DNA from: Desulfosporosinus youngiae DSM 17734
Lineage (GTDB): Bacteria; Bacillota; Desulfitobacteriia; Desulfitobacteriales; Desulfitobacteriaceae
Length of the DNA stretch: 64,000 nt
Assembly: GCF_000244895.1 (NCBI RefSeq)
Contig: NZ_CM001441.1
Coordinates: forward strand, 1 to 64,000
Direction of reading: 5' to 3'
In this document: one piece after another, positions 44,281-48,098 of the stretch
Layout of the letters: each line of letters begins with the position of its first letter
Position numbering within the stretch: the first letter of the stretch is position 1
The notes under the pieces: model-generated
Told to the model about the DNA's origin: nothing
The model's database searches: none
What the model saw: only the letters and a program-made list of their open reading frames with translations
Position numbers and translations under genes: made by a program

Positions 44281-45503
44281 TGAAAAGAGGCAAAGGACGC
44301 AGGACAGGACTTATAGTGATCCTGATTACCGGCCTTTTGTTGTTGCCGGGGTGTTGGGGTAAGCGGGAAGTTGAGCAGTTGGCACCTTTATTAGCAGTAG
44401 GGTTTGATCTTGGGCAAGAACCGGATTCTTTTCTCATTACGGCACAATATGCAAGGGTAAAAAAAACTGGAGGAAATAGTGCAGAGATTATGGACCGGAC
44501 ATTTAGTGTGGAAGCTAAAAGTGCCAGGGATGCTTTTGATAAAATTGCCAAAGTTACCTATCGGACCCCTTTTATAGGTTCACTGAAGGTGATACTAATT
44601 GGCGAGAGTGTGGCAAAAAACGGAGGCTTTAATGATATATTGGATTTCACACAGCGCTTTTCTGAATTTCGCCGATCAATGTACTTAGTTTTAGTTAAAG
44701 GGAAAGCTCAGGATATTTTAAACTTAAAATTACGCGCGGGATTATTGCCTGGGATTGCTATTAAAAATAACATTGAAGGCGGAGATGAAATATCGAGTTT
44801 CCCAACGGTACGCTTGGGGCATTATCTTACCATTCAGGGCAGAAAAAGTACGGCGCCAATTTTTCCGGTCGTTGAAAGTGTAAAATCAGGAGAGGGCATT
44901 GAATATAGTGCAGAAGGCCAAGGTGAGGCCGGAGAGATGAGAATAGATGGCGCTGGGGTTATGAGCGGGGATCGCTTAGGGAGTTTTCTGACCGATCAAG
45001 AAACCAAAGGGTATATGTGGCTGGAGGATAATATTATAAATCGTTTAATAGACTCAGCGGATCTTGAAGAAAACGGTGTAAGGTTTGGAGGGCAAGTTAT
45101 AAAATCCAGTACAAAGTACAAAGTCAAAGCAAGCAACGAAAAAATGGAATTGCGGTACGAGATTAATGCAAGTGTTGCCATCGATGAAATTCTGGGATTA
45201 AAGAAACAACTATCGGGGCCGGAATGGGTAGAATTAGTCAAAGAGTCAGAAAGGAGCTTTGCCAGGGTTATTGAGCAAGAATGTGAGGCTGCGATTAAAA
45301 AGCAGCGAGAATTAGGGCTTGATTTTTTGGGCATAGGGCGGCATATTGAACAGAAAAATGCAGCCTATTGGAAGACAATTAAAGATCAATGGCAAGAGAT
45401 GATAGCGGATTTTCCAGTTGCTTTAGACATTAAAGTCACAGTTCATCATTCTGGAATGTCGAGCAGCAGCGCGACTAATTCTGCGGGAGAGGGGCAAGAC
45501 TAG
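44280..45503 (+). CDS. spore germinant receptor lipoprotein (GerAC type)
   Basis: 407 residues. It has a signal peptide ending in a lipobox, GLLLLPGCWGKREVEQ, so the mature protein is lipid-anchored at Cys25 or so. The N-terminal WGKREVEQLAPLLAVGFDL and later FTQRFSEFRRSMYLVLVKG are GerAC hallmarks. It completes the A-B-B-C receptor. Start overlaps the stop of the second permease by one base, implying coupled translation. The C-terminal tail is Ser-rich and low-complexity. Confidence 0.94.
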   Translation: MKRGKGRRTGLIVILITGLLLLPGCWGKREVEQLAPLLAVGFDLGQEPDSFLITAQYARVKKTGGNSAEIMDRTFSVEAKSARDAFDKIAKVTYRTPFIGSLKVILIGESVAKNGGFNDILDFTQRFSEFRRSMYLVLVKGKAQDILNLKLRAGLLPGIAIKNNIEGGDEISSFPTVRLGHYLTIQGRKSTAPIFPVVESVKSGEGIEYSAEGQGEAGEMRIDGAGVMSGDRLGSFLTDQETKGYMWLEDNIINRLIDSADLEENGVRFGGQVIKSSTKYKVKASNEKMELRYEINASVAIDEILGLKKQLSGPEWVELVKESERSFARVIEQECEAAIKKQRELGLDFLGIGRHIEQKNAAYWKTIKDQWQEMIADFPVALDIKVTVHHSGMSSSSATNSAGEGQD

Positions 45504-45541
45504 AGGTAGAAGTTAATTGCCCCTACAAGGAGGATCAAATT

Positions 45542-45775
45542 ATGATGGAGATCATTAAAGAGAAGGTTGAAGGCAAGATAAATACTTCACACGAAGGAAA
45601 GGTCCTTCCCGTGTGTTATCGTTGTGCACAGGTCCCGAAAAAGGGTCTGTATGATGGATTTAGAGTACAAGGGATGTTTTTCTGCTCAGATTGCCAAGAA
45701 GAGCTGTTTACAGCAGAGCAGGGTTCGCCGGAATATCAGGAATTTATGTTTTTAATTAAAGGAATTTTTTATTAG
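45542..45775 (+). CDS. sigma-G inhibitor Gin (CsfB family)
   Basis: 77 residues with two CxxC pairs (VCYRCAQVP and FFCSDCQEEL), the zinc site of the Gin/CsfB family. Gin keeps sigma-G inactive at the wrong time in Bacillus sporulation. AAGGAGG lies before the start; the second Met is an alternative start. In B. subtilis csfB also lies upstream of yaaO, which supports the call. The gene is followed by 900 bp of non-coding, structured DNA. Confidence 0.82.
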   Translation: MMEIIKEKVEGKINTSHEGKVLPVCYRCAQVPKKGLYDGFRVQGMFFCSDCQEELFTAEQGSPEYQEFMFLIKGIFY

Positions 45776-45839
45776 TTTTTACCCACTCTGAAAAAAGCCT
45801 CTTGGGTTAGACAGGAGGTCGGTTCTACTGCCTGGCTCT

Positions 45840-46060
45840 GGGGCGGAGCGCTTTTCAGCTTTGTTAACCCGTGCGAAGACGGTGTCTTCGGTCTGCACGC
45901 GTCTGCGAGTTCCGCCGCTGGCTCGCTGGACGGTTCGCGAGCGCGTCCGAACCTCTGGGTATTTCTGCATGTGAACCTGCGGCGCGCTACGGGGACGCGA
46001 ACCGTCTGCGCTCGCCTTAGCGCGGCTCCACTGACGCATCCGCTTAGCAGACAAGCGCTC
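45840..46060. other. GC-rich structured non-coding block
   Basis: No credible gene. Inverted repeats include an 11-bp perfect pair GACGGTTCGCG (45929-45939) / CGCGAACCGTC (45996-46006) and a 7-bp pair CGCGCTA (45983-45989) / TAGCGCG (46018-46024) that crosses it. As RNA the two would be a pseudoknot or alternatives to each other. It also holds copy B of the 21-bp palindrome. GC content is well above the flanking genes. It may be part of one large RNA with 46233-46415 or a decayed mobile element. Confidence 0.5.
45870..45890. repeat. 21-bp palindromic repeat, copy B
   Basis: CGTGCGAAGACGGTGTCTTCG; 20 of 21 positions match 28041-28061. Arms CGAAGAC / GTCTTCG. Confidence 0.6.
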
Positions 46061-46232
46061 CTTCAGCCAGTTTGTTGGGAATGTAAGCAGAACTTTGGGG
46101 GAGGCTGGTAAGGCTTCGTGGAATCTTTTTCATCTTCTGATGGTGCTGCGGCAGCAGCATAGGCGTCTACTCTGAAAAATTACAGACCAAAGACCCTAAA
46201 GACATGCAGAAAAATCCCTAGACCCGCAAGCA

Positions 46233-46415
46233 GGGCAGCTTCGTCCACAGAAGCGAACCCATTGTATGGAGAGGCGGTAAAAGCCCACAAGACGGTGCGG
46301 GGAAACGGAGCCACGGGTTCACATCAGGTATTACCCTGAGGTTTGGCGAAGTCCCGCACCGGCGAGTGGGCGAGCCTCGGAATGTTGCGGTGAGCGGATG
46401 TGGACGAAGCTGCCC
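46233..46415. ncRNA. candidate structured RNA with 17-bp closing helix
   Basis: GGGCAGCTTCGTCCACA (46233-46249) is the exact reverse complement of TGTGGACGAAGCTGCCC (46399-46415), 149 bp apart. Inside, helices are nested in order: GAGGC (46271-46275) / GCCTC (46374-46378); GCCCAC (46283-46288) / GTGGGC (46366-46371); CGGTGCGGG (46293-46301) / CCCGCACCG (46353-46361); and the hairpin TCAGG / CCTGA (46324-46339). This makes a 183-nt rod with a large internal loop (21 x 20 nt). The strand is uncertain because the pairing is symmetric; plus is co-directional with its neighbours. I do not recognise the class. The overall shape recalls 6S RNA, but no 6S sequence signature was verified. Confidence 0.6.
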
Positions 46416-46498
46416 GACTCCGGATGCTCTCGTTTCCATCCTTTGATGTGCAGCCTTAGCGGCATGAACAGCTACTCTGATAAGCTTGCGGCATCGGC

Positions 46499-46510
46499 AA
46501 TTCATGAATT
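46499..46510. repeat. palindrome AATTCATGAATT, copy 1
   Basis: Perfect 12-bp palindrome; an identical copy is at 46622-46633. Confidence 0.5.
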
Positions 46511-46621
46511 CTCCCCAGCGGACTCCAGTGCTCTATTGCCTATTTACACCTTATTCATTAAAGATGAAATATTTTCTAATTCGTGTTAAAATATAAGGAA
46601 TACCGTAAATTTAGCAGGAAT

Positions 46622-46633
46622 AATTCATGAATT
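46622..46633. repeat. palindrome AATTCATGAATT, copy 2
   Basis: Identical to 46499-46510. It lies 44 bp before the start of the decarboxylase gene, where a repressor operator could act. Confidence 0.5.
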
Positions 46634-46676
46634 GTCTTGCTTAGACTAGTTAGATAAATGGAGGGTTTATTGTTCA

Positions 46677-48098
46677 GTGGGTGATCTTGGAGAAGGATTG
46701 AGCCGTTACCATAAACAAGGATTTTGCTCTTTCCATACTCCTGGCCATAAAGGACGGCAGGAGTTTTTTAATGGCTCCGATTTTCCAGGCTTCGACTTAA
46801 CCGAGCTTCCCGGGTTGGATATGCTTCATTCCCCCAGCGGAATTATTGCAAAAGCACTGAAACAAGCAGCCGATATTTTCGGAGCAGAGGAAACCTTTTT
46901 CCTTATCAATGGAGGGACAGTTGGCAATCAGGCCATGTTTCTGGCCTTAGGAGATACGGATGACAAACGAGTGATAGTAGAAAGAAGCTCTCATCGTTCT
47001 GTTATGTCCGGTCTGGTTTTAAGTGGATTGAAACCAGACTATGCAATGCCTGTAATTCATCCGGATTTTAATCTTCCGTTGGGATTTAATGCAGCAAACC
47101 AAAGAATATCCTGGCAAGAAGCAGCTGCCTGTCATGTTACCTATCCCAGTTATTATGGAACTGTCTTTGACTTAGGCGGATTAGTAGAAAAGGCGCAAAT
47201 GGATTTTAGCATACCTGTGCTTGTGGATCAGGCACATGGTTCACATTATCTTAGCCCTCTATTTCCACCGAGTGCTTTAAAGCTCGGAGCGGACCTTGTC
47301 CTGCATAGTTCTCATAAGACTTTAAGTGCCTTAACTCAGTCGGCAATGTTACATGTCCAGGGAGCTAGGGTCTCGCGTACCCGTTTGAGACAAGGGCTGG
47401 AACTTTTACAGTCCTCAAGCCCAAGCTATTTGCTTCTGTCTTCGTTGGAACGGGCCGGGGAATTTGCTTTGGATTTATGGCGCTGGGAGTGTCTTAAAGA
47501 AGCAGTCGATGATCTTCATCGGAAGGTGGGAATGGATTTTCGTATTCTCTCACCAGCGGATGCCGGGACGTTTGGCATTCATGGGGTGGATTGGTCAAAA
47601 GTACTTATTAATACATCTCCGCTGGGAGTTCCGGCTCCCCGCTGTGTAGAATATCTCAGAGAAGGTTTTGGAATAGAACCGGAATTATGGGATGAGGAAA
47701 ACATTCTTTGCCTGTTAGGCATTGGAAATACGCCGGAGGATGTGCAAAGGCTGATAAAAGGACTCGAGAGTTTAAGAGATTCCTCATCCTCAATGCGATC
47801 GACTGTCTTGGAAAATCGCCAGGGGAGACCCGGCGGATTAAATCTTCCGCTGCCTCACCCGGTTCTCTCTCCGCGTGAAGCATTCTTTGCCCGCAAACGA
47901 AAAATCCCCCTTAAGGAGAGTCTAGGCCATATCGTTGGGGAGACGATCTCTCCCTATCCGCCTGGAATTCCGTTTGTTGTAATGGGTGAAGAAATGACCT
48001 ATGAAGTGCTGAATATGCTGCTCACCGCTGAAGAAGGACGCTGGCAAGGGTGGGAAGGTTTTCAAAGCCGTACAATTTCGATCATTGAGGTGGTATAG
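46677..48098 (+). CDS. Orn/Lys/Arg decarboxylase-family protein (YaaO-like)
   Basis: 473-residue PLP enzyme of fold type I. The N-terminus CSFHTPGHKGRQEF and the PLP lysine in LVLHSSHKTLSALTQSAMLH mark the family; the C-terminal domain follows (PYPPGIPFVVMGEEMT). It should decarboxylate a basic amino acid to a polyamine precursor; which one is not clear. The start is GTG at 46677 with GGAGGG at 46660-46665. Location upstream of holB and ricT matches yaaO of B. subtilis, but tmk, yaaQ and yaaR, which separate them there, are missing. Confidence 0.9.
   Translation: MGDLGEGLSRYHKQGFCSFHTPGHKGRQEFFNGSDFPGFDLTELPGLDMLHSPSGIIAKALKQAADIFGAEETFFLINGGTVGNQAMFLALGDTDDKRVIVERSSHRSVMSGLVLSGLKPDYAMPVIHPDFNLPLGFNAANQRISWQEAAACHVTYPSYYGTVFDLGGLVEKAQMDFSIPVLVDQAHGSHYLSPLFPPSALKLGADLVLHSSHKTLSALTQSAMLHVQGARVSRTRLRQGLELLQSSSPSYLLLSSLERAGEFALDLWRWECLKEAVDDLHRKVGMDFRILSPADAGTFGIHGVDWSKVLINTSPLGVPAPRCVEYLREGFGIEPELWDEENILCLLGIGNTPEDVQRLIKGLESLRDSSSSMRSTVLENRQGRPGGLNLPLPHPVLSPREAFFARKRKIPLKESLGHIVGETISPYPPGIPFVVMGEEMTYEVLNMLLTAEEGRWQGWEGFQSRTISIIEVV

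What the first reader, a model, noticed from the sequence alone, without database searches (positions are those of the whole stretch)
46233..46415. Unrecognised 183-nt structured RNA candidate with a perfect 17-bp closing helix
Two 17-mers 149 bp apart are exact reverse complements, and between them at least four more helices nest in order (5, 6, 9 and 5 bp). Chance cannot easily give such ordered nesting. No gene overlaps it, and the stretch is GC-rich in an AT-rich genome. The rod with one large internal loop is 6S-like in shape, but I could not match any known class. Alternatively the 17-mers could be terminal repeats of a small MITE, although the inner nesting argues for RNA.
Basis: partly seen in the sequence, partly recalled or inferred. 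Interest (0 to 1): 0.75.

Follow-up and report, generated by a model that had tools for sequence, protein, structure and literature searches.

The report
Dispersed mobile repeat with conserved fold
The stretch is one of about a hundred scattered copies of a small, apparently mobile DNA repeat whose folded shape has been kept across several bacterial families while its sequence changed; it matches no family in the RNA library searched, and what moves it and what the fold does are not known.

Summary
In detail: 46233-46415 has a perfect 17-bp closing helix and folds far better than shuffled sequence. The reading as a single RNA gene is not. The same fold has 112 model matches in this genome. At this locus no core was found in the stretches read from 28 other genomes of the genus, and a second locus shows the same in 17. 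The copy lies in a block of two units (about 45785-46483), each ending in a 52-nt tail and the word CTACTCTGA. So it is a dispersed, apparently mobile, non-coding repeat. The 17-mers are not its ends: the unit extends past both arms, and in two heliobacterium-like genomes the arms differ between copies while pairing within each. The fold is nevertheless a conserved feature: 36 of 45 pairs show double changes across 29 sequences, and no Rfam family matches. A covariance model found it in 12 of 398 genomes sampled from the phylum (own included), in 11 of them more than once. No gene for moving it was found. Best reading: a non-autonomous element moved in trans and recognised through its folded strand, like REP, MITE and bcr repeats but longer and wider in range. 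Whether the fold acts as RNA or as single-stranded DNA is open.

The parts
46233..46415 (+). structured core, 183 nt; full-length match to covariance model R1
   Evidence: 184.5 bits, E 6.2e-49; the window copy is itself in the seed alignment
46233..46249 (+). 5' arm of closing helix P1
46399..46415 (+). 3' arm of closing helix P1
46306..46351 (+). apical domain, the stretch best matched in other genera by plain DNA search (GGUUCACAUCAGGUAUUACCCUGAGGUUUGGC)
46174..46478 (+). module B: inferred mobile unit, GAAAAA ... core ... tail ... CTACTCT
   Evidence: size agrees with the excess at a second locus; exact ends inferred
46433..46483 (+). tail of module B, degenerate, ends CTACTCTGATAA
   Evidence: weak DNA fold, z -1.2
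45785..46178 (+). module A: second repeated unit, 13 long copies in the genome, this one included
45890..46053 (-). diverged core inside module A, on the opposite strand
   Evidence: 64 bits, E 1.2e-14
46127..46178 (+). tail of module A and junction to B, ends CTACTCTGAAAA
   Evidence: DNA fold z -2.4
45542..45775 (+). Gin gene upstream (context only)
   Evidence: Pfam PF10764, 28.3 bits, cut-off 27
46677..48098 (+). Orn/Lys/Arg decarboxylase gene downstream (context only)
   Evidence: Pfam PF01276, 165 bits

Best explanation
The stretch is the folded core of a small non-coding mobile repeat of about 300 bp that spreads without a gene of its own. Shown: it is repeated about a hundred times, is absent at two orthologous sites in relatives, and its fold is kept by paired changes across families. 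Inferred: a protein made elsewhere recognises the folded + strand (as single-stranded DNA or as RNA) and inserts the unit 3' of a short word close to CTAYNCT, which the unit's own right end (CTACTCT) resembles, so that units line up in tandem as in this window. A single-strand (Y1/HUH, IS200/IS605 or RAYT-type) transposase is my leading candidate for the enzyme, at about 0.3; that step is a guess from anatomy. Once in place, copies would be passively transcribed in leaders, trailers or operon gaps.
For: 112 matches of the model in this genome (150 of 805 candidates scored) and 48 by plain DNA search (40 of 111 candidates scored). Gap Gin-decarboxylase 904 bp here, 142-311 bp in the 27 of 28 relatives where both anchors were found, and no model match in any of the 28 fetched stretches. 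Second locus (nth-like gene to the next, named by eye): 337 nt here, 37-56 nt in 13 and 157-234 nt in 4 of the 17 relatives read, no core in any of the 17; the excess of about 290 nt is the size of the unit. Left word: of 23 own copies without a tail on their left, 13 have CTAYNCTGAAAA within one mismatch and 18 within two, against 1 and 54 of 2450 shuffles; at the second locus that word (TTC TAT TCT GAA) is codon-aligned with the relatives' gene end, so there it looks like target. Tails and cores go together: 56 of 100 listed tails lie 14-122 nt 3' of a core on the same strand. Fold. G-U exceeds A-C mispairs, 30 to 9 in inner stem pairs of A1, as expected if the + strand folds. Orientation to co-directional neighbours 19 sense, 15 antisense, which argues against a cis-regulator.
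Against: No transposase was found with these ends: the three Y1 matches of the genome have no tail or left end within about 1.5 kb, and of ten orphan tails I read nine, with ORFs listed for six, and recognised no element gene by eye. No target duplication or single-base junction could be read. Five of the 23 copies without a left tail lack the left word. In two heliobacterium-like genomes 13 of 20 loci are shared in place, so there the element is not hopping and may have a kept function. The tail scores above its shuffles next to 4 of 5 own cores tested, 3 of 13 from the genus, 0 of 33 heliobacterial and 0 of 12 distant ones, so the composite unit is a local form and the core may move by other means elsewhere. 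Some heliobacterial copies have lost part of the apical motif. The tails of this window fold weakly as DNA.
Confidence: 0.75

Rival explanations
1. A functional RNA family: the core is made as RNA and works in trans or as a processed leader or trailer element; copies multiplied because they are useful or because the RNA itself is part of the mobility machine.
For: Fold conserved across families with 36 of 45 pairs doubly changed; invariant unpaired motifs in the apical domain and inner loops; G-U over A-C excess; 13 of 20 heliobacterial loci kept in place with 28 double, 20 single and 34 broken pair changes, 670 unchanged.
Against: About a hundred copies, absent at two orthologous sites in the genus; no strand preference to neighbours; no shared neighbour gene seen at ten distant loci (by eye). 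No promoter scan was run.
Confidence: 0.15
2. The pairing is kept by a mutation process rather than by selection: template switching during replication copies one arm onto the other, so that inert palindromes look like conserved RNA.
For: Arms differ between copies of one genome yet stay complementary; template switching is reported to create and maintain perfect stems (PMC8794818, abstract and start of the introduction read).
Against: Apical and inner-loop positions outside the helices are among the most conserved, and the strand bias of mispairs is not expected from correction alone; but that bias is small and in the heliobacterial subset only 7 to 4. It may well act together with selection.
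Confidence: 0.1
3. A classical MITE whose 17-mers are the terminal inverted repeats of a cut-and-paste transposon.
For: Dispersed, short, non-coding, perfect inverted repeat.
Against: The repeated unit continues about 60 nt beyond each arm, and arm sequence is not constant between copies in other genomes.
Confidence: 0.03

Closest known systems
bcr1-bcr18 repeats of the Bacillus cereus group
   Same: Short intergenic repeats, some MITE-like, some with conserved secondary structure, 40-51% of copies found within transcripts (PMC3446304, passages read)
   Different: bcr repeats are described from one species group; here one fold spans several families and reaches 112 matches in a genome. Sequence relation was not tested.
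REP/REPIN repeats and RAYT (TnpA-REP) transposases
   Same: Hairpin with GTAG (here CTAC on the other strand) near its foot, high copy, intergenic, moved in trans (PMC6006769, passages read)
   Different: REPs are 21-65 nt; this unit is about 300 bp with a 183-nt core. No Y1 gene flanked by the repeat was found.
IS200/IS605-derived non-autonomous elements
   Same: Folded regions near both ends and insertion 3' of a short fixed word (that family's features: PMC6006769, passages)
   Different: No related transposase ends found; the ends of this unit are inferred only
Omega RNAs of IscB/TnpB and bridge RNAs of IS110 (recalled)
   Same: Structured RNA of about this length linked to mobile elements
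   Different: No Rfam hit to any family, and no nuclease or recombinase gene recognised beside ten distant copies (by eye)
Small dispersed repeats of cyanobacteria (recalled)
   Same: Nested small palindromic inserts in loops of larger repeats
   Different: Size and fold; no sequence comparison made

Membership tests
MITE (cut-and-paste) | terminal inverted repeats shared by the copies | tested here: not met
   unit extends beyond the arms; arms vary between copies
MITE (cut-and-paste) | target-site duplication | tested here: inconclusive
   left and right junctions not identical by eye; relatives too diverged for an exact empty site
MITE (cut-and-paste) | dispersed, multi-copy, non-coding, absent at orthologous sites | tested here: met
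REP/RAYT | GTAG word at the foot of a short hairpin | tested here: inconclusive
   my consensus tail has CTAC just outside the extended + strand RNA stem; the two tails of this window fold weakly as DNA
REP/RAYT | associated tyrosine transposase gene flanked by the repeat | tested here: not met
   three Y1 matches in this genome, no tail or left end nearby; other genomes not tested
any Rfam 15 family | match at the curated score | tested here: not met
   Searches (permissive, window; gathering, nine loci with distant or related copies): none
conserved structured RNA | paired changes in excess of controls | tested here: met
   92.2% of cells paired, 74.4% shuffled, 33-41% slid; 245 cells changed on both sides, 77.5 shuffled
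conserved structured RNA | transcript | not testable with these tools
   no expression data
IS110 bridge RNA or IscB/TnpB omega RNA | adjacent recombinase or nuclease gene | tested here: inconclusive
   none recognised among ORFs beside ten distant copies, by eye only; no family search made on them

The most novel reading that the evidence does not exclude
The core is a working RNA of a new kind of mobile element: a folded RNA, conserved over several bacterial families and free to change its closing helix, that takes part in recognition or movement of the element (as omega or bridge RNAs do in theirs) and is supplied in trans by one or a few active copies.
Probability: 0.13. Interest if true: 0.85.

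Novelty: new variant of a known kind. Interest (0 to 1): 0.52.

Why it matters
One fold of about 180 nt, unmatched in Rfam 15, makes up tens of copies per genome in Desulfosporosinus and related genera and recurs in heliobacterium-like and more distant genomes. It would explain many unannotated G+C-rich gaps, is a clean case for separating selection on RNA from template-switch maintenance of stems, and points to an unknown mobility enzyme. A covariance model that finds it across families was built here.

Tried and rejected
Stand-alone RNA gene at this locus: rejected by copy number and empty sites. 17-mers as transposon ends: rejected. Autonomous partner: Y1 genes checked for the ends, none; nine of ten orphan tails read, no element gene recognised; several are remnants of truncated cores. 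Phage or plasmid carriage: no match by blastn, no exact match to two core patterns in viral contigs. Composite unit conserved across genera: I first thought so; one search shows the tail mostly in this genome and a few others. Pseudoknot between the 5' loop (GYGAAC) and the apical GUUCAC: attractive in the genus, but many heliobacterial copies lack the apical half, so not claimed. Extra apical helix P7 (GCCA/UGGC and longer variants): seen, but my test picks the longest stem and mismatched controls are also high (mean 5.8 against 7.3; 199 of 200 with 4 or more), so only suggestive. Cis-regulation: no orientation bias; a first count took a spurious ORF inside module A as neighbour of the window copy, so I repeated it leaving out ORFs over module matches (19 sense, 15 antisense, 5 divergent, 3 convergent, 7 of 49 incomplete). 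Group II intron at L344: seen by eye, no Rfam hit. Paper searches whose listings showed no title on this repeat; word searches of two papers on palindromic and stem-loop repeat families found neither 'desulf' nor 'heliobact'.

Rows dropped: the seed of A1 came from 93 core hits, of which 72 had a closing helix in my fold and 31 were left after removing near-copies; I dropped two of these (L031, L117) and trimmed two. One search was given 33 of the 40 heliobacterial stretches; G147 has 21 matches and G376 25, of which 20 regions each were fetched.

Full report
Observation. The inverted repeat is exact and in place. The stretch folds at -99.2 kcal/mol, z -7.7, with no shuffle of 200 as good. Rfam 15, searched permissively over 45400-47200, shows three hits with E 0.2-2, none on 46233-46415.

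It is a repeat. A DNA search of the genome (5,660,978 bases, one contig) with 46180-46480 gave 48 matches with 40 of 111 candidates scored; 41 of them, the window copy included, are long (over 300 bits), the other 40 at 86-96% identity. A second unit, 45785-46178, has 13 long copies, this one included. The two lie head to tail in the window. Both end in a stretch of about 52 nt that can form a hairpin, with CTACTCTGA; a pattern for this tail, three mismatches allowed, occurs 106 times in the genome against 0 for the reversed pattern. Of 100 listed tails, 56 lie 14-122 nt 3' of a core on the same strand, 11 lie 3' of a core on the other strand, 23 lie 5' of a core (19 same strand, 4 opposite) and 10 are orphans. 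The window's own last tail is too degenerate for that pattern. The unit begins at about GAAAAA and ends at CTACTCT; when another unit follows, its GAAAAA comes next, and otherwise the flank is mostly unrelated (by eye). Of 23 copies with no tail on their left, 13 carry CTAYNCTGAAAA within one mismatch and 18 within two; 5 do not; shuffled flanks give 1 and 54 of 2450.

It moved in. Between the same two genes the gap is 904 bp here and 142-311 bp in 27 of 28 other genomes of the genus (the largest contains a run of N); in the 28th no Gin gene was recognised in the fetched stretch. The model finds no core in any of the 28 stretches. One of these gaps, L204, holds a lone reversed tail-like hairpin (by eye). 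At a second site, between an nth-like gene (named by eye) and the next gene, the distance is 337 nt here, 37-56 nt in 13 and 157-234 nt in 4 of the 17 relatives read, with no core in any. There the word before the insertion, TTC TAT TCT GAA, is in frame with the gene end of relatives, so it was probably there before. I could not fix the junction to the base.

The fold is conserved. In 29 sequences from several genera (A1), RNAalifold gives 45 pairs, 36 of them with at least one double change. 92.2% of cells pair, 74.4% after shuffling, 33-41% when the 3' side is slid by 1-3 columns; 245 cells have both sides changed against 77.5. The structure was derived from this same alignment and the seed copies had been chosen for having a closing helix, so the slid control flatters it and P1 in particular is partly selected for. 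A model built from it (R1) has 112 matches in this genome, 73 in G435, 21 in G147, 25 in G376, 12 in G264, 5 in G134 and 1 in G105. It finds 12 of 398 genomes of the phylum and 25 of 41 of the order, own genome included in both; both searches used stricter filters, so these are lower bounds. A scan of named genomes for an exact core word gave 70 stretches, from Desulfosporosinus, Paradesulfitobacterium, Gracilibacter and one unnamed Clostridiales assembly. Nine loci with copies from other genera gave no Rfam match at gathering scores.

Arms are free to vary. In the two heliobacterium-like genomes the arms differ between copies of one genome and yet pair within each copy, though about half share a common arm word (by eye). 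Thirteen of 20 fetched G147 loci have a partner in G376 by flank similarity; in these pairs 670 stem pairs are unchanged, 20 changed on one side, 28 on both sides and 34 broken (stems from the fold of one partner). Paired change alone does not prove selection, because template switching can copy one arm onto the other (PMC8794818; abstract and start of the introduction read). Two things speak for selection on a folded strand: apical and inner-loop positions outside the helices are among the most conserved, and G-U mispairs exceed A-C, 30 to 9 among inner stem pairs of A1 (40 to 18 in the model-fitted A2, where the fitting favours G-U, and 7 to 4 in its heliobacterial part).

Function. Of 49 own copies, 42 had both neighbours called: 19 sense and 15 antisense in co-directional gaps, 5 divergent, 3 convergent (crude ORF calls of 100 aa or more, leaving out ORFs over a module match, so 'between genes' is partly by construction; two loci had an ORF of 200-219 aa over a module match). 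This is what a passive insertion would show. No mobility gene with these ends was found. The unit's anatomy (folded region inside the left end, hairpin-like tail at the right end, insertion after a short fixed word that the right end repeats, no evident duplication) resembles single-strand transposons and REP elements moved in trans, and I name a Y1-type enzyme as the leading candidate, as an inference only. Precedent for passive transcription of such repeats exists for the bcr repeats, 84 of 165 and 62 of 155 copies in mRNAs of two strains (PMC3446304, passages read).

Verdict. Not an RNA gene of this locus, but a family of structured, apparently mobile repeats, wide in range and unmatched in Rfam; I found no description of it in the paper searches listed under Tried and rejected, which cover open papers only. 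What it works like (a trans-moved hairpin repeat) is better supported than any formal membership: MITE is contradicted by the ends, and REP/RAYT lacks its partner gene here.

Noticed in passing
L067-L069, L031 (3' inner loop); L024, L106, L110 (apical loop): Smaller palindromic sequences sit inside loops of some cores, at recurring positions (ACGAAGACACTGTCTTCGC... and ACGAAAGTGTCCGG...), as if a second level of mobile hairpins targets the loops of the first.
   Followed up: partly
L344, about G000:C1:2061 kb: A stretch that looks by eye like a group II intron domain V abuts the 3' half of a tail; Rfam gave no hit.
   Followed up: partly
window 45890-46053, - strand: Module A carries a diverged core in the opposite orientation to its tail, so core orientation within a unit is not fixed.
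   Followed up: partly
L297-L336 (G147, G376): Many heliobacterial copies share arms GGGTGTATTGGC/GCCAATACACCC, some with a further palindromic extension (GGTAARYC ... GRYTTACC) just outside (by eye).
   Followed up: no
L102, L042, L044, L049: Left part of the apical motif replaced by another module with words like CCAAGGATGG...GGAGCGAC, a mosaic seen in several genomes (by eye).
   Followed up: no
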